Assembly: GCF_000177675.1 (NCBI RefSeq)
Contig: NZ_ADGX01000041.1
Coordinates: 1-64,000 of the forward strand
Source: Parafrankia sp. EUN1f
GTDB lineage: Bacteria > Actinomycetota > Actinomycetes > Frankiales > Frankiaceae
Direction: 5' to 3'
Length of the DNA: 64,000 nucleotides
This document shows, piece by piece, positions 51,506 through 60,191 of this stretch; the stretch's first letter is position 1; each line of letters begins with the position of its first letter. Both the position numbers and the translations under genes were made by a program. The notes under the pieces were generated by a model that did no database searches, was not told where the DNA came from, and saw only the letters and a list, made by a program, of their open reading frames with translations.

Positions 51506-53520
51506 GACCGGGCTACCTCCAGGTCGGCGCCGTCGGAGGCGGCGCTTTCGAGACGGGGACCTTCGGCGCGGGCACCGACCGAGTGGGATCGGTCGGCGTC
51601 GGCGTCAACACTGCGTGAGGCAGCTGTGCGGGAGCTGTCGGCTCGGGAGCTGTCGGCTCGGGAGCTGGCGATTCGGGGGCTGTCGGCGGGAGAGCCCGTG
51701 TCCGGGCGGGTCTGACCGCTTCCGTCGCCAGCGGGCTCGGTCAGCCGCCCGGACACGGCCTGGCCCGGGCCGGCCTCGGCGTGACGTGGTCCGCCCGAGC
51801 AGCCACCACCCTTTCCACCCTTTCCGGCGCCGCCGGAGCAGGAGCCGGGGCGGACGGTGACCGCGAACTCGAACGGGTCCTCGTCCATCAGGTCCGGGTC
51901 GAGCAGGTCGACGTCGACCAGCTCGCCCCCCAGCACGTCGAGGTCCAGCTCGGCGACGACGTCGGTCGGGGAAGTACCGGCGTCGTCGGAGCCGGCCGCC
52001 TGGTCGGCGGCGGCCCGGGCCGTGATCCGGGCGCCGGTCGTGGCGACAGCCTTCTCGATCAGTTCGTAGACCTCGACCGGTTCGATGCCGGCGTCCTCGA
52101 GGGCGTCATACGGACCGGGACCGATCTTGCTGCACAGCACGGCGGCGCAGTCCGAAAGCATCGCGATGGTCTTGTCGAGCACCGAGGCCCCGTCCCCGCA
52201 CTCGGTCGCGCCTTCGCAGTAGCGCTGCACGTCACGGGTCTGGACGAGGCGGGCCCAGTTGAGCCCGGCCTCGTAGATCCAGAACTCGGTGGCGTGCCCG
52301 AAGTGCTGGTTCACCACACCGCTGCCCTTGGTCGCGACGGCGACCAGGACGGTGTCCTCCGGCTTGCTCCCGGTGCTGGTGATGCTCAGCGTCTCGCGCT
52401 CGGCGCGGTTCTCCTCGCGCCACCGCTCGATCTGGGCGTGCGCGGCCTGGCGGCCCTCGAGGTCGTAGGCGATCTCGCGGCCCTGGTACGTCTCCGGGCT
52501 GAACTCGTCGCCGCGGTCCTCGCCGAGCAGGCCGACGGCGTCGGCCCGGCACTGCCGGCAGTGCCGCATCATGTTCATGTCGGCGCCGTCGACGCCCTCG
52601 CAGCGGTCCTGCAGGGCCTTGAGCTCCTGCGGGGTCGGCCCGCGCTGGCCGGCGAGCCCGAAGACGGTGCCATGCTCGGGCGCGGAGACCAGCGGCATCA
52701 CGTTGTGCAGGAAGGCACCGAGTCCGCGGACGGTCTGCGAGACCTCGACGAGGTGCTCGTCGTTGACCCCGGGGATCATCACCGAGTTGACCTTGGCGAG
52801 GATCTTGCGCTCGGCGAGCATCGCGAGCCCCTCGAGCTGACGCTCGGAGAGGATCTTCGACGCCTCCCGGCCGGTGTACTTCTTGCCCTTGTAGGCGACC
52901 CACGGGTAGATCCGCTCGCCGACCTCGGGATCGATCATGTTGATGGTGATCGTCACGTGGTCGACGTTCAGGTCGGCGATGCGGTCGACGTGGTCGGGCA
53001 GGGTGAGCCCGTTCGTCGACAGGCACAGCTTGATGTCCGGGCAGTCCCGGGCGACCAGCTCCAGGGTGCGGAAGGTGCGCTTCGGGTTGGCCAGCGGGTC
53101 ACCCGGGCCGGCGATGCCCAGCACGCTCATCTGCTTGATCTCGCTGGCGACCAGCTTGACCTTGGCGAGGGCGTCCTCGGGGGTGAGCAGGTCGCTGGTG
53201 ACGCCCGGCCGGCTCTCGTTCGCGCAGTCGTACTTGCGGTTGCAGTAGTTGCACTGGATGTTGCAGCCGGGCGCCACCGCCACGTGCATCCGGGCGTAGT
53301 ACTGGTGCGCCTCGGAGCTGTAGCACGGGTGGTTCGCGATCTTCTCCGCGATCTCCGGGTCGGTCGCCGGAGCGCTGCTGCCGCAGCTCTTCTTCGACGC
53401 GCAGCCACCGCCGGGCGTAGCCGGCGCGGCGGCGGCCTGGCCGGCCGAGCCGGGCTGAATCGACAGGGGCGCCGCCGGCGCGGTGGACAGCACCGGAAGC
53501 GCGACGGGCTCGTTGGTCAC
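51502..53520 (-). CDS. nifB: NifB, radical SAM FeMo-cofactor precursor synthase
   Basis: 672 residues. After a Cys-containing N-terminus ([13 protein letters not shown]), the radical SAM site is [14 protein letters not shown] (about residues 85-98). Further NifB features: [36 protein letters not shown] NifX-like domain (about 395-500) has [19 protein letters not shown]. It makes NifB-co from Fe-S clusters and SAM. Residues about 545-672 are a long low-complexity tail: a Cys/Gly patch ([17 protein letters not shown]) then Ser/Arg/Asp repeats ([11 protein letters not shown]). Most NifB proteins end near 500. GTG start overlapping nifZ. Confidence 0.95.
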
Positions 53521-54492: not shown

Positions 54493-54949
54493 CGCGGGCA
54501 GCCTCCCGGTACTGGTCGACGTACTTGGCGGCGGCGGTCACGAAGGCCTCGCCGCGGGCGGCGAGGTCCTCCAGGGAGTTGAAGCCGAAGCGCTGGGCGT
54601 CACGCAGGACGTCGGAGAGCACCACGAGCCGTCCCGCGAAGATGACGACCCGGCCGAACCCCTCGTGGTTCAGGTCGAGCACCGTGGTCGTCTCTGCCCT
54701 GGTCGCCTTCTCCACCGCGGCGGCGACCGCCTGGTAGAAGGAGCGCACCCGGGCCTCGATGACCGCGTCGATGTCGCAGGCCACCGAGATCTGGCGCCGC
54801 TGCTCCTTCGTGAGGACGAACGGGGCGAGCATCGCCTCGTCGGAGAACTTGTCGAGCTTGCCGTAGGTGTCGCCGGCGCGGAGCTGGTCTGCGAGGTCCT
54901 TCAGGAACCCCTCGACCTTCCCGTTCGCCGCGGATGTCGATGCGGTCAT
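54482..54949 (-). CDS. Orf3, NifX-associated nitrogen fixation protein (DUF269)
   Basis: 155 residues from ATG 54947-54949 with GGGAGG about 6 nt upstream. Family features: [20 protein letters not shown] and the C-terminal [16 protein letters not shown]-like segment (here [20 protein letters not shown]), ending [17 protein letters not shown]. Nearly always adjacent to nifX in diazotrophs; the exact function is not settled. Overlaps nifX stop by 4 nt. Confidence 0.92.
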
Positions 54950-55407
54950 GCCGTTCCTCCCATGGTTGTCGGGGTCGACGTGGCCGAATCCGAGGCGGAC
55001 GAACCGGTCGTGGCCGGCGTCCAGGCGGGAGCTTCCTGGGGGCTGTGCGCCCGCAGGATCTTGCGCAGCCACGGCGGCGGGCTGCCGGCGAGCACGTCGA
55101 CGAACTTGGTGAGCAGGCCGTCGATCGCGGTGCCCTTGGCGACCTTCATCGGGTAGATCTGGGCCTTGATGACCTTCGCGGCCGCGGTCCCTCCGATGTC
55201 GGAGACGTTGAGGATCGCGCAGTCGGTGACGGCGGCCAGCCGAGAGGCGATCTTGTCCTCCTCGTCCTCCTCGGCGGGCCCGAGCTCACGGGTCTCGAAC
55301 AGTCGGTAGCCCTGCGGTCCGACCTCGTAGACGTCGAACCGGCGGCACCAGCCGAAGTGCTGGTCGACGGCGCTTCCGTCGCCGGTCGCGAAGGCGATCT
55401 TCAACAT
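54946..55407 (-). CDS. nifX: NifX, FeMo-cofactor precursor carrier
   Basis: 153 residues from ATG 55405-55407 (GAGGAG 5-6 nt upstream). [20 protein letters not shown] is the dinitrogenase iron-molybdenum cofactor-binding start; [20 protein letters not shown] and [18 protein letters not shown] follow. About 35 residues of Thr/Ser/Ala tail extend beyond the domain. It binds cofactor precursors during transfer between NifB and NifEN. Overlaps nifN by 7 nt. Confidence 0.94.
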
Positions 55408-55622
55408 GAGGGCTCCTCGCACAGAACGTCGAGCTCGTCGAACGGGTGGATCGGGTGCGGGCTGACGTCGACGTCGCTGCGCTCGGCGCGGTGGCCCGGG
55501 TCGTCCCGGTGCGGTTCCGCGCGGTGGTCGGCGTGCTGGTGCTCTATGTGCTGGTGCTCTATGTGCTGGTGCTCCGCGTTCGGGTGCTCTGCGTGTTGGT
55601 GCTCTGCGTGCTGGTGGTGGTG
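55401..55622 (-). repeat. Repeat block encoding the NifN His-rich tail
   Basis: In-frame 15-bp repeats (such as CTATGTGCTGGTGCT on the plus strand) between about 55530 and 55620 produce alternating Glu-His-Gln-His units. Similar short tandem repeats occur at other gene ends in the window, so slippage of this kind probably created the tail. Confidence 0.85.
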
Positions 55623-56945
55623 GTCGAGCAGCCGGTTCGCCGCGTCCACCAGGAGCCGCAGGCTGCCGCTGTACCCGGCGGTCGTGCGCAGGGCCGCGCC
55701 GAGCCGGTCATAGATCGGGAAGCCGACCGGCAGGTGCGGGATGCCGATGCGGTCGGCGACCGCCCGGGTGTGGCTGGACCCGATGACCAGCTCCGCACCG
55801 CCCTCGACCGCCCGCTCCTCCAGGTCGACCAGGTCGCCGATGACGATCTCGTCCCACGGGGCGGTGGCCAGCACGGGGGCGTCCGTCGGGGAGACTGCCG
55901 CCACGATCTCGACGCCGACGTCGCACAGCAGCGAGCCGACGGCGACCAGCGCCTCGGGCTCCATCGCGAGCGCGACCCGGGCGCCGCCCAGGTAGAAGTG
56001 GGTGTCGAGCAGGCCGTCGGCGAGGCGGGCCCGGGCCCGGCGCACCTCGTAGGACGGACCGCGGCCGGACCGGGCCATCAGGTCGCTGACCAGCCCGTCC
56101 ACCGCCCGCAGGCCGCTGAGGTGGTCATAGCGCAGGAGATCGGCGTCGGTGCGGCCGGCGAGGTCGGCACCGGCGGCGGCCGCGGTCGCCCCGGCCGTGA
56201 TCACCAGGCCCGCGCGGTCGAGGCGGCGCAGCCGGGTCAGGTCCGTCCCGCCGGTCGTCGTCGGCTGCCAGGCCGGGGCGAGGTGCCCGTCCAGCGAGCC
56301 CGACAGGTCCGGGACGAGGATCGGGCTCAGCCCGAACGAGCGGATCAGCGCGCTCAGCTCGTCGAGGTCCGCGGCGGTCAGGGACGGGCCGACGAGCACC
56401 GCGACCGTGGTCTCACGCTCGAGGCCGTCAGGGTCGGGCCCGTCAGGGTCGGGGCCGTCGAACGGCACCGTCGTGACGAGCGCCCGCAACGCGGCCGACC
56501 AGCCGTCCGACAGGCCGCCGACGAAATCAGGCGTCGACACCCGCACGATCAGCGGGGCGCCCTCGGGAGTGGTGTGCTCCATCATCGCGATGTACTGGCG
56601 CATCTGGCCGGCGACGTCCTCGCCGCTGACCTCGGTGACCCCGGTGGTAAGCAGCCCGATGATCTCGGGGCGCTGCTTGGCGCGAATCGCGTCGAGGTGC
56701 ACCACGAGCTCCTCACCGCTGCCCATGACCGCGGTGACCTCGGTGATCCCGGTGGTCTGCAGCGGAACGGGCTCGTTGAAGTGCCGGGTGAGCAGCGCCT
56801 TGGCGAACGAGGCGCAGCCCTTCGAGCCGTGCATCACCGGCATGGAGCTGGCGAGGCCGAGGAAGACCAGGGCGCCGCCGAGGGGCTGGCTGAACTTCAG
56901 CGGGTCCAGGCCGGCCCGCCGGCTGCTCGTGACGACCCGCGCCAT
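55401..56945 (-). CDS. nifN: NifN, FeMo-cofactor scaffold subunit, with His-rich tail
   Basis: 514 residues from ATG 56943-56945, overlapping the nifE stop by one base. NifN/K fold: [40 protein letters not shown] (cluster Cys), [20 protein letters not shown], and a C-terminal [20 protein letters not shown]. With NifE it forms the scaffold on which the cofactor matures. The last 73 residues (from about 442) are an added tail with 18 His, in repeats [15 protein letters not shown]; this is absent from typical NifN (about 440-460 residues) and looks metal binding. Confidence 0.95.
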
Positions 56946-58330
56946 CACGCCACCCCCGCTGAGGTGCTGGCGACGTCCCAGGGTGCGGGGGCACGGACCT
57001 GCTCCCACACCGGGTTGGTCAGGGCCAGGTCGAGGCGGCGGGCGAGCTCGACGGCGCCGCGGTAGCCCGCGTAGGGGATGTGCCGCTCCTGGTTGATGTC
57101 CAGGAAGGGCAGCCGCCCCTTGAGCGCGGTGTACATGTTGCGGCCACCGGCGACCAGGATGTCCGCGCGGGTCTCGTCCGCGATGCGCAGCAGCTCGCGC
57201 GGGCTGCCCTCGGAGACGATCTTCGCATCCGGGCCGAGCAGCTCGGAGATCTTCTCGACGTCCCCGTCGGAGCTCTTGGTGATGCCGTTCGCGACGACCT
57301 CGATCCCGAGGTCCTGCAGCGCGGCGACGATCGACCAGCTCTTGACCCCGCCGGTGTAGAGGACGGCGCGCTTGCCGGCGAGCCGCTCCCGGTAGGGCTC
57401 CAGGGCCAGGTCGACGGCGGTCTGCTCGAGCTCGATGAGTTCCTCGGCGCGCTCGGCGAGCGCGCCGCCGCCGAGCAGGCGGGCGAACTGGCGCAGCGTG
57501 TCGTTCATCGCCCGGACGCCGTAGAAGCTGCCCTCGAACCAGGGGATGTCGTAGCGCTCCTCCAGCCCGCGGGCCAGCCCCAGCAGGGCCCGGGAGCAGA
57601 CGACCATCGTCGCGCGGGCCCGGTGGGCGGCGGCGACGTCGGCGTAGCGGGCGTCCCCGCTGATGCAGGCCCGCACCCGCAGGCCCAGCTTGGACAGCGT
57701 GGGCAGGACGTCCCACAGCTCGCCGGCGATGTTGTACTCGCCAACCAGGTTGACGTCGTACTCGCTCACGTCGGCCGGTTCGACCGTGCCGATGACGTGA
57801 TCGAGCAGCGCGTCACCGGCGATCTTGTTGCCGAGGTTCTTGTTGCCGACGAAGCCCGGCGCGTGCACCGGGATCACCGGCACGCCGGTGTGCGTGGCGG
57901 CGGCGGCGCACACGGCGTCGAGATCGTCGCCGATCATGGCGGTGACGCAGGTCGAGTAGACGAACACCGCTGGCGGCCGGTGTCGCTCGACGGCTTCGAG
58001 AATGGTGTCGAACAGGCGCTGCTCGCCACCGAAGATCACATCCTGCTCGCCGACGTCGCTGGTGAAGCCGCGTCGGTAGAGGTCGGGTCCTGACGACAGG
58101 CTTCCCCGCCCGTCCCAGGAGTTGCCGGCGCAGGCGATGGGGCCGTGCACGACATGGGCACTGTCAACGATCGGGACCAGGGTGATCAGCGCACCGTCGA
58201 AGGTGCAGCCCCCGCTGGTGCCACCAGGCGCGGGCTTGGGGCAGCCGGCCTTGCGCTCCTTCGCGGACTTCTCCCGGTTGTGGTCACAGGCCGGTTCGGT
58301 GAAGAGAGTTGCGCGGTCAGTGGCGGCCAT
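56945..58330 (-). CDS. nifE: NifE, FeMo-cofactor scaffold subunit
   Basis: 461 residues from ATG 58328-58330 with GGAGAG about 8 nt upstream; a longer frame upstream crosses the nifK-nifE spacer without similarity. NifE/D fold: [40 protein letters not shown] (cluster Cys), [18 protein letters not shown], and [20 protein letters not shown]. Partner of NifN. First gene of the tightly overlapped block that runs to hesB. Confidence 0.95.
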
Positions 58331-58634
58331 GGCGATCTCTCCGCTTGGGAGGGCGTTGCCCTCAATGAGCTGGGTGAGCGGGGCCGTTCGATGGACCAGC
58401 GGTTCTTCTGAACCGGAGCGGTTGTCGGCGGTGGGGGTGTGGCCGGCCGACCAGGGCGCCGACCCCGGCAGGGGCGGGGCGCCGGCCTCTCGCGACACAG
58501 GGGGCGCGGTCCCGGCGCGCGGGCGGGGCTCCGTCCGAGCGGGGGCGTGGGGCCGCCGGCCGGCCGACCACTGGGAAGGCCGTGCGTACCGTTCGGGGGA
58601 TGCCGATGCTCAGGAGACATCCCCCGAACGGGAC
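58331..58634. other. nifK-nifE spacer
   Basis: 304 bp without a gene, very GC-rich. It holds the stem-loop immediately after nifK and the leader of nifE. No clear promoter could be identified by eye. Confidence 0.7.
58589..58631 (-). promoter_or_regulatory. Stem-loop directly after the nifK stop
   Basis: Perfect 14-bp arms CCGTTCGGGGGATG and CATCCCCCGAACGG with a 15-nt loop; the hairpin begins 3 nt after the nifK TAG. No U-run follows. It could stabilise the nifHDK mRNA end or attenuate read-through into nifE. Confidence 0.8.
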
Positions 58635-60191
58635 CTAGCGCACGGCGTCGAAGCTATGCGGCAGGCAGTTGCGGTCCAGCTCGTCCAGGAAGGTGTTCAC
58701 CATCTGGGTGAGCAGGCTCAGCCCACCGGTGTACCCGATAGTCGCCTGGCGGTGCAGGTGGTGACGGTCGAAGATCGGGAATCCGACCCGGAGCAGCGGA
58801 ACGTTCGCCTCCCGGGAGATGTACTTCAGGTAGGTGCTGCCGATGAGCAGGTCGACCGGCTCGGTGAAGACCAGCGACCGCAGGTGCCACAGGTCCTTCT
58901 CCGGCCAGACGGTGGCGGCGTCGCCGAACTTGCTCGCGGAGAGAACCTTCTCCATGCGCGCCTTGAAACCGCTGTCGGCGTTGGTGCTCACCAGGTGCAC
59001 CGGCACCATGCCGCACTCCAGCACGAACCGGGTCAGCGCGACGACCAGGTCCGGGTCGCCGGCGATCGCGACCCGCTTGCCGTGCAGGTAGGCGTGCGAG
59101 TCGGCGAGGGCGTCGACGAGACGTCCACGCTCGACGGTGAGCTCGGCCGGGACCGGCAGGCCGGTCAACCGCGCGATCTCGGTCAGGAACTGGTCGGTGC
59201 CCCGGATGCCGATCGGCGTCTCCAGGACGGCCGTCTCCTGCTTCCAGGTGTCCCGGACGAGTTCCGCCGTCCGGCGCATCGTGGATTCCTGCAGGACGAC
59301 GCTGGCCTTGCTGAACTTGGCGGTCGCGGCGTCCGCCAGCTTGGTGCCACCGGGGTAGAGGTCGTACTCCCCGTTCGCCGGCGAGTCGAGCGCGTCGGAG
59401 TGGTCGCCGAGGATCAGGGGGGCGACCCCCATCAGCTCGAGGATCCGGCGGTACTCACGCAGGTTGCCGAGGTAGGTCTCGAAACCGGGGAAGATGTTGA
59501 GCTGCGGCTTCCCACCGGTCTGCGGAGCCTTGGCGTCCGGCCCCGCCGTGACCATGTCAAGGATGCCCTTGATCATGACGTCGTAGCCGTTGAGGTGCGA
59601 GCCCACGAAGCTCGGGGTGTGGGCGTACGAGACCGGGAACTCCTGGGTGATGGCTTCCTGGTCCCGCGCGGTGCGGATGTAGGCGAAGAGGTCCTCGCCG
59701 ATGACCTCGGCCATGCAGGTGGTGCTGACCGCGATGTGCTTCGGCTTGTACAGCGCCGTCGAGTTCGCGAACGACTCGACCAGGTTGTTGATCCCGCCGA
59801 AGACCGCGGCGTCCTCGGTCATGGAGGTGGAGGCCGCCGGGACGGGCTCCTTGAAGTGCCGCGCGAAGTGGCTGCGGAAGTACGCGACGCAGCCCTGCGA
59901 CCCGTGCACGATGGGCAGCGTGCCCTCGAAGCCGATGGCCGCGAGCACCGCGCCGAGCGGCTGGCAGGCCTTGGCCGGGTTGACGGTCAGGGCCTCGCGG
60001 GCGAAGTTCTTCTCGCGGTACTCCCAGGTGCGGGTCCACTCCAGGACCCGGTTGACCTCGGCGTCGTCCGCACCGTTCTCGAACTCGCGCTTGGTCTCGA
60101 ACTGCTTGGTGTAGACCTCGTCCTTGAACAGCTCGGTGTGGTCGAGGACCTTAAGCGGGATGTGACTGTTCGTCTCGGGAGTCGTCGTCAC
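58635..60191 (-). CDS. nifK: NifK, nitrogenase MoFe protein beta subunit
   Basis: 518 residues. The P-cluster cysteines are in NPAKACQPLGAVLAAIGFEG, IVHGSQGCVAYFRSHFARHF and VSTTCMAEVIGEDLFAYIRT. Other family phrases: TPSFVGSHLNGYDVMIKGIL and the C-terminal RVGFPIFDRHHLHRQATIGY. It forms the alpha2beta2 MoFe protein with NifD and shares the P-cluster. GTG start with AAGGAGGAGG about 6 nt upstream. Confidence 0.97.
   Translation of the reverse strand: MTTTPETNSHIPLKVLDHTELFKDEVYTKQFETKREFENGADDAEVNRVLEWTRTWEYREKNFAREALTVNPAKACQPLGAVLAAIGFEGTLPIVHGSQGCVAYFRSHFARHFKEPVPAASTSMTEDAAVFGGINNLVESFANSTALYKPKHIAVSTTCMAEVIGEDLFAYIRTARDQEAITQEFPVSYAHTPSFVGSHLNGYDVMIKGILDMVTAGPDAKAPQTGGKPQLNIFPGFETYLGNLREYRRILELMGVAPLILGDHSDALDSPANGEYDLYPGGTKLADAATAKFSKASVVLQESTMRRTAELVRDTWKQETAVLETPIGIRGTDQFLTEIARLTGLPVPAELTVERGRLVDALADSHAYLHGKRVAIAGDPDLVVALTRFVLECGMVPVHLVSTNADSGFKARMEKVLSASKFGDAATVWPEKDLWHLRSLVFTEPVDLLIGSTYLKYISREANVPLLRVGFPIFDRHHLHRQATIGYTGGLSLLTQMVNTFLDELDRNCLPHSFDAVR

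What the first reader, a model, noticed from the sequence alone, without database searches (positions are those of the whole stretch)
55401..55622. NifN carries a C-terminal histidine-rich repeat tail
NifN ends with 73 extra residues holding 18 histidines in repeats [10 protein letters not shown], encoded by short tandem DNA repeats. NifEN is where iron and molybdenum are loaded into the cofactor, so a His-rich tail could store or deliver metal (Ni, Zn, Fe or Mo) or be a neutral product of slippage.
Basis: partly seen in the sequence, partly recalled or inferred. Interest (0 to 1): 0.65.

Follow-up and report, generated by a model that had tools for sequence, protein, structure and literature searches.

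The report
Slippage-grown histidine-rich tail on NifN
The NifN protein of this Frankia-type bacterium does end in a histidine-rich repeat tail, but comparison with its relatives shows mostly a fast-changing, repeat-grown flexible linker whose fixed end is the start signal of the next gene (nifX), so a metal-storing role is possible but not favoured.

Summary
NifN (window 55401-56945, minus strand) ends in 73 residues with 18 His, built on a 15-bp tandem repeat (55523-55616).

In 24 Frankiaceae genomes the tail is hypervariable: 24-86 residues and 1-18 His, sometimes with His-free repeats at the same place. The sister species has one 15-bp unit fewer. NifN has a second, His-free 15-bp repeat in a loop, and in-frame repeats of 15-24 bp are common in this genus. 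The tail is under weaker protein-level constraint than the NifN body, and His sites are not preferentially kept.

Two parts are conserved. The last five codons hold the Shine-Dalgarno and start codon of the overlapping nifX. Just before them, a D(E/Q)LDxL peptide is shared by Parafrankia and Frankia. In Azotobacter NifEN the same point of the chain (H434/H435) begins a strap that bridges to NifE (PMC13128457).

Best reading: a slippage-expanded flexible tether in front of a short conserved terminus, kept in frame because nifN termination is coupled to nifX initiation (inferred). Modest or incidental metal binding is a minority hypothesis.

The parts
55401..56945 (-). nifN coding sequence (514 aa plus stop)
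   Evidence: TIGR01285 equivalog, 437 bits against cut-off 326.8; closest solved chain 3pdi_B NifN, E 5.8e-100
55404..55622 (-). C-terminal tail, residues 442-514, 73 aa with 18 His; mostly disordered in the AlphaFold model
   Evidence: AlphaFold2 pLDDT below 50 for residues 460-514
55523..55616 (-). 15-bp tandem repeat array encoding (Q)H(A/I)EH units; the hypervariable linker
   Evidence: TRF period 15, 6.3 copies, score 118; one unit fewer in sister species G003
55422..55439 (-). Conserved terminal peptide D-E-L-D-V-L (D(E/Q)LDxL in Parafrankia and Frankia)
   Evidence: Between the two genera pN 0.045 against pS 0.454 for the D-E-L-D-L positions; only predicted helix in the disordered part is residues 503-506
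55413..55418 (-). GAGGAG, Shine-Dalgarno-like site of nifX inside the nifN 3' end (encodes Glu-Glu)
   Evidence: (G/C)AGGAG or a near variant, 5 nt before the nifX start, in Frankiaceae nifN genes that keep the overlap
55401..55407 (-). ATGTTGA: nifX start codon overlapping the nifN stop codon
   Evidence: (A/G)TG(T/C)TGA in every Frankiaceae copy but one and in two actinobacterial relatives outside the family (L049, G043); absent from about 80 non-actinobacterial nifN
54946..55407 (-). nifX, the overlapping downstream gene
   Evidence: TIGR02663 nifX, 132 bits against cut-off 112
56425..56459 (-). Second 15-bp repeat inside nifN, in a variable loop ([11 protein letters not shown]), without His
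   Evidence: TRF; 2 DPDG units here, 3 in sister species G003, large RSTRS-type expansion in Frankia s.s. G008

Best explanation
The tail is a flexible linker that grew by slippage of short in-frame DNA repeats. It joins the end of the NifN fold (His442/443, equivalent to H434/H435 of Azotobacter NifN) to a short conserved terminus. Shown: the repeat, its in-frame copy-number variation between species, its weaker protein-level constraint, and the nifX Shine-Dalgarno and start codon embedded in the last codons. Inferred: (1) nifN and nifX are translationally coupled, so ribosomes must leave the linker in frame, which filters repeat changes to multiples of 3; (2) the linker tethers the D(E/Q)LDxL segment, which plausibly contacts NifE as the Azotobacter NifN C-terminal strap does; (3) the high His content is mainly historical, because the seed segment after the last helix already contained His and 15-bp duplications copied it. 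Some weak binding of Ni, Zn or Fe by the His repeat is chemically likely but probably not what the tail is kept for.
For: Tails from 24 nif-bearing Frankiaceae genomes: 24-86 residues after the fold and 1-18 His, nearly all joined to the same ending. Sister species G003 has 5 units against 6 here, and two adjacent units here are identical including ATA. Tail dN/dS exceeds body dN/dS: 0.82 against 0.14 for G000/G003 (Fisher p 0.016) and 0.87 against 0.09 for G004/G002 (p 1.8e-5). Background: 189 arrays in 464 kb; 97 of 105 coding arrays have a period divisible by 3, against 37 of 84 elsewhere; 15 bp is the second commonest coding period. Related repeat DNA elsewhere in the genus reads as GAGAP- or LVL-type sequence. 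Repeats without His at the same place: DVPE/DVSR in G034, PTGAA in G023. Overlap and SD retained almost throughout the family, and the one copy that lost the overlap (G016, L178) also lost the DELD..QESPC ending. The terminal 13 codons show no synonymous change in 10 of 15 Parafrankia pairs, as expected for a DNA-level signal. DELD-L is conserved as protein. Azotobacter: NifN beyond H435 bridges a gap and binds NifE (PMC13128457).
Against: The G000/G003 dN/dS depends on how repeat units are matched: 0.82 by MAFFT, 0.31 (p 0.08) by a hand unit alignment. The MAFFT alignment of G004/G002 may be uncertain in the same way. His-rich linkers appear in several lineages with different units (AEHQH, ASDGH, AASHG, and DHHHHTGHHH outside the family), which slippage alone does not predict. 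His is rare in other coding repeats of the genus (1.4%; only 4 of 97 arrays reach 10%). Coupling of nifN and nifX and docking to NifE were not tested. Protofrankia-type NifNs lack a clear DELD motif.
Confidence: 0.65

Rival explanations
1. The His-rich tail binds and stores or hands over a metal ion (Fe, Zn, Ni or Mo) for cofactor assembly on NifEN, like the His-rich segments of HypB, UreE or Hpn.
For: Highest His window compared with 287 genes checked (18 of 73 against at most 10). His-rich in all six Parafrankia (16-24%) and separately in some Frankia and in L049 (9 of 40). His-rich low-complexity regions in prokaryotes are enriched in metal-binding proteins (PMC6821194).
Against: His count is 1-4 in several nif-bearing relatives and 0 in the G043 ending. 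Non-His repeats occupy the same position in G034 and G023. His columns are not better kept than others in the closest pair (2/17 against 5/51 changed). No paper in the library holds NifN with 'histidine-rich'.
Confidence: 0.17
2. The tail is purely neutral filler: everything beyond the fold is spare, and only the nifX ribosome-binding site and start constrain it.
For: Large length range, weak protein-level constraint, and the last five codons explained by the nifX start signal. G016 copy L178 has a short tail without the ending.
Against: D-E-L-D-L positions have pN 0.045 against pS 0.454 between Parafrankia and Frankia, which a nucleotide-only constraint does not predict. The Azotobacter NifN C-terminus has a structural contact with NifE (PMC13128457).
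Confidence: 0.17
3. The tail is an assembly or sequencing artefact.
For: Tandem repeats can be miscounted in draft assemblies (396 contigs).
Against: Five other separately assembled genomes of the genus have homologous tails, and the 94-bp array is short.
Confidence: 0.01

Closest known systems
Azotobacter vinelandii NifN C-terminal strap (PDB 3PDI and the 2026 cryo-EM structure, PMC13128457)
   Same: Starts at the equivalent residues (H434/H435 align with window H442/H443), leaves the fold and is partly flexible.
   Different: About 25 residues in Azotobacter, reaching NifE; here 73 residues, with a repeat linker and a different terminal motif. Contact with NifE not shown here.
His-rich metal-storage tails and proteins (HypB, UreE, Hpn)
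   Same: High His content in a low-complexity segment of a metallocentre assembly protein.
   Different: His content not conserved between orthologues; the protein makes FeMo-co, not a Ni centre; no binding data.
In-frame coding tandem repeats (VNTR-like) of the same genus
   Same: 15-bp period, in frame, low complexity, unit number differing between sister species; such arrays are common in this genus.
   Different: Unusually His-rich, and anchored by a conserved 3' end that overlaps the next gene.

Membership tests
NifN (TIGR01285) | Score over the curated cut-off across the full model | tested here: met
   437.4 bits against 326.8, profile positions 2-430 of 433
NifN (TIGR01285) | Gene order nifE-nifN-nifX | tested here: met
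   nifK 58635-60191 and nifX identified by NCBIfam; the ORF at 56945-58498 between nifK and nifN is nifE by its sequence and place; all on the same strand
His-rich metal-storage tail (HypB/UreE type) | His-richness conserved among orthologues that have the function | tested here: not met
   1-18 His among nif-bearing Frankiaceae; some non-His repeat tails
His-rich metal-storage tail (HypB/UreE type) | Binds several metal ions per chain | not testable with these tools
   Needs protein
Variable in-frame tandem repeat | Copy number differs by whole units between close relatives, frame kept | tested here: met
   6 against 5 units in G000 and G003; all Frankiaceae copies but one end at the nifX start
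Variable in-frame tandem repeat | Variation among strains of one species | not testable with these tools
   One genome per species is held
Translationally coupled gene pair | Stop and start overlap with the SD inside the upstream gene | tested here: met
   GAGGAG-N5-ATGTTGA at 55401-55418; conserved across the family
Translationally coupled gene pair | Downstream translation depends on upstream translation | not testable with these tools
   Needs a reporter experiment
NifE-docking strap | Tail contacts NifE | not testable with these tools
   Only a single-chain model was possible; residues 460-514 have pLDDT below 50

The most novel reading that the evidence does not exclude
The Parafrankia NifN tail is a tunable tether: repeat-number changes adjust how far a conserved D(E/Q)LDxL docking peptide reaches from NifN to NifE or a cofactor carrier, while the His repeat buffers Fe or Mo locally at the NifEN scaffold.
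Probability: 0.1. Interest if true: 0.7.

Novelty: new variant of a known kind. Interest (0 to 1): 0.3.

Why it matters
NifEN is where the FeMo-cofactor is finished, and its C-terminal strap was only recently resolved. Frankiaceae provide a natural length and composition series of that strap (24-86 residues, 1-18 His) in organisms that carry nif genes. That makes it possible to test whether the strap needs a given length, a given sequence or metal ligands. The finding also cautions against reading a His-rich repeat as a metal site when the genus makes such repeats everywhere.

Tried and rejected
RNA structure in the tail mRNA: z-score -0.75, nothing special. Tail as a dispersed or duplicated element: no second copy in its own genome, and distant matches in the genus are simple repeats read in other frames. 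The simple gene caller used for the background missed nifN itself, because its longest ORF overlaps nifE, so nifN was compared by hand. The first idea that (Q/E)E(S/P)(P/S)C-COOH is a conserved protein motif was dropped when the codons showed it to be the nifX Shine-Dalgarno and start region. A literature search for NifN with 'histidine-rich' found no paper.

Full report
Observation. On the minus strand it carries nifK, nifE, nifN, nifX and further nif genes. NifN is 514 aa. Its fold ends at ...DAANRLLD441, and residues 442-514 form the reported tail: 73 residues with 18 His and a 15-bp repeat at 55523-55616. No other gene checked in 464 kb of this and the sister genome has more than 10 His in 73 residues.

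What the neighbours show. All six genomes of the genus have the tail, with 18, 16, 12, 8, 7 and 6 His. Across the family (25 of 35 genomes with a match; the C-terminus could be read in 24) the segment after the fold ranges from 24 to 86 residues and from 1 to 18 His. Some members have repeats without His at this place: DVPE/DVSR-type in G034 and PTGAA-type in G023. Some Frankia have other His-bearing units (ASDGH in G013, AASHG in G018), so His-rich linkers appear more than once. Outside the family, L049 (a MAG labelled Mycobacterium) has 9 His in 40 residues, while G043 has none in its short ending. Seventy-nine NifNs from other phyla have a median of 36 residues after the same point and 8% His, usually in a short His patch right after the last helix. 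The His patch is therefore widespread and probably old, and the long repeat is a local expansion.

Slippage. Sister species G003 (97% identical NifN) has five units where this genome has six, and units 4 and 5 here are identical including an ATA codon. In-frame arrays are a habit of this genus: 189 arrays in 464 kb, of which 97 of 105 in genes have a period divisible by three against 37 of 84 outside called genes, and 15 bp is the second commonest coding period. NifN itself has a second 15-bp repeat, without His, in a variable loop (56425-56459) that also differs in unit number between G000 and G003. DNA similar to the tail repeat elsewhere in the genus is read in other frames or strands as GAGAP- or LVL-type sequence.

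Selection. By MAFFT alignment the tail has dN/dS 0.82 against 0.14 for the body in G000/G003, and 0.87 against 0.09 in G004/G002 (Fisher p 0.016 and 1.8e-5). A hand alignment by repeat unit lowers the first value to 0.31 (p 0.08), so the safe statement is 'relaxed', not 'neutral'. In that hand alignment His columns changed 2 of 17 times and others 5 of 51: no sign that His is specially kept, though the numbers are small.

The fixed end. In every Frankiaceae copy but one, nifN stops inside (A/G)TG(T/C)TGA, the start of nifX, preceded at 5 nt by (G/C)AGGAG or a near variant. The same start/stop arrangement is found in L049 and G043, and not in about 80 non-actinobacterial genes. The apparent protein motif (Q/E)E(S/P)(P/S)C is thus a by-product of the nifX start region. 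In 10 of 15 Parafrankia pairs the last 13 codons show no synonymous change at all. The exception, a second nifN copy in G016, has lost both the overlap and the ending. Just upstream, D(E/Q)LDxL is conserved as protein between Parafrankia and Frankia (pN 0.045, pS 0.454). An AlphaFold model (mean pLDDT 77.9) is confident over much of the fold, has pLDDT below 50 for residues 460-514, and shows one short helix there at 503-506, on this motif.

Mechanism. In Azotobacter, NifN beyond H435 was not resolved in the crystal but is seen by cryo-EM to bridge a gap and bind NifE, ordered up to P449 (PMC13128457). H434/H435 align with H442/H443 here, so the tail occupies the place of that strap. The best-supported reading is a slippage-expanded flexible tether in front of a short terminus, kept in frame by the nifX overlap. 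Coupled translation and NifE docking are inferences. Metal binding remains possible, given composition and its recurrence in several lineages, and His-rich low-complexity regions are in general enriched in metal-binding proteins (PMC6821194), but it lacks conservation here.

Verdict. Real feature, ordinary mechanism of origin, one useful new detail (variable tether plus conserved terminus plus embedded nifX start). Interest 0.3.

Noticed in passing
window 56425-56459: A second 15-bp repeat within nifN, in a variable loop (GPDPDG units), with one more unit in the sister species; in Frankia s.s. (G008) the same loop is expanded to a long RSTRS-type insert.
   Followed up: partly
window 51629-51687: 15-bp repeat near the C-terminus of NifB encoding SRADS-type units, beyond its NifX-like domain.
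   Followed up: no
L178 (G016:C106) and L034 (G016:C788): Genome G016 carries two nifN copies, one Parafrankia-like without the nifX overlap and one Frankia-like with it: possibly two nif sets or a mixed assembly.
   Followed up: no
L183, position about 1560-1670 (G003:C6): A CACCAGCAC-type repeat encodes a Gly/Ala-rich N-terminus of a short-chain dehydrogenase-like ORF in the sister genome.
   Followed up: partly
G003:C4:238183-238276 (L136): Another His-bearing coding repeat (EHGENGKHSKHGENGKHGENSEHGE) in an unrelated gene of the sister genome.
   Followed up: no
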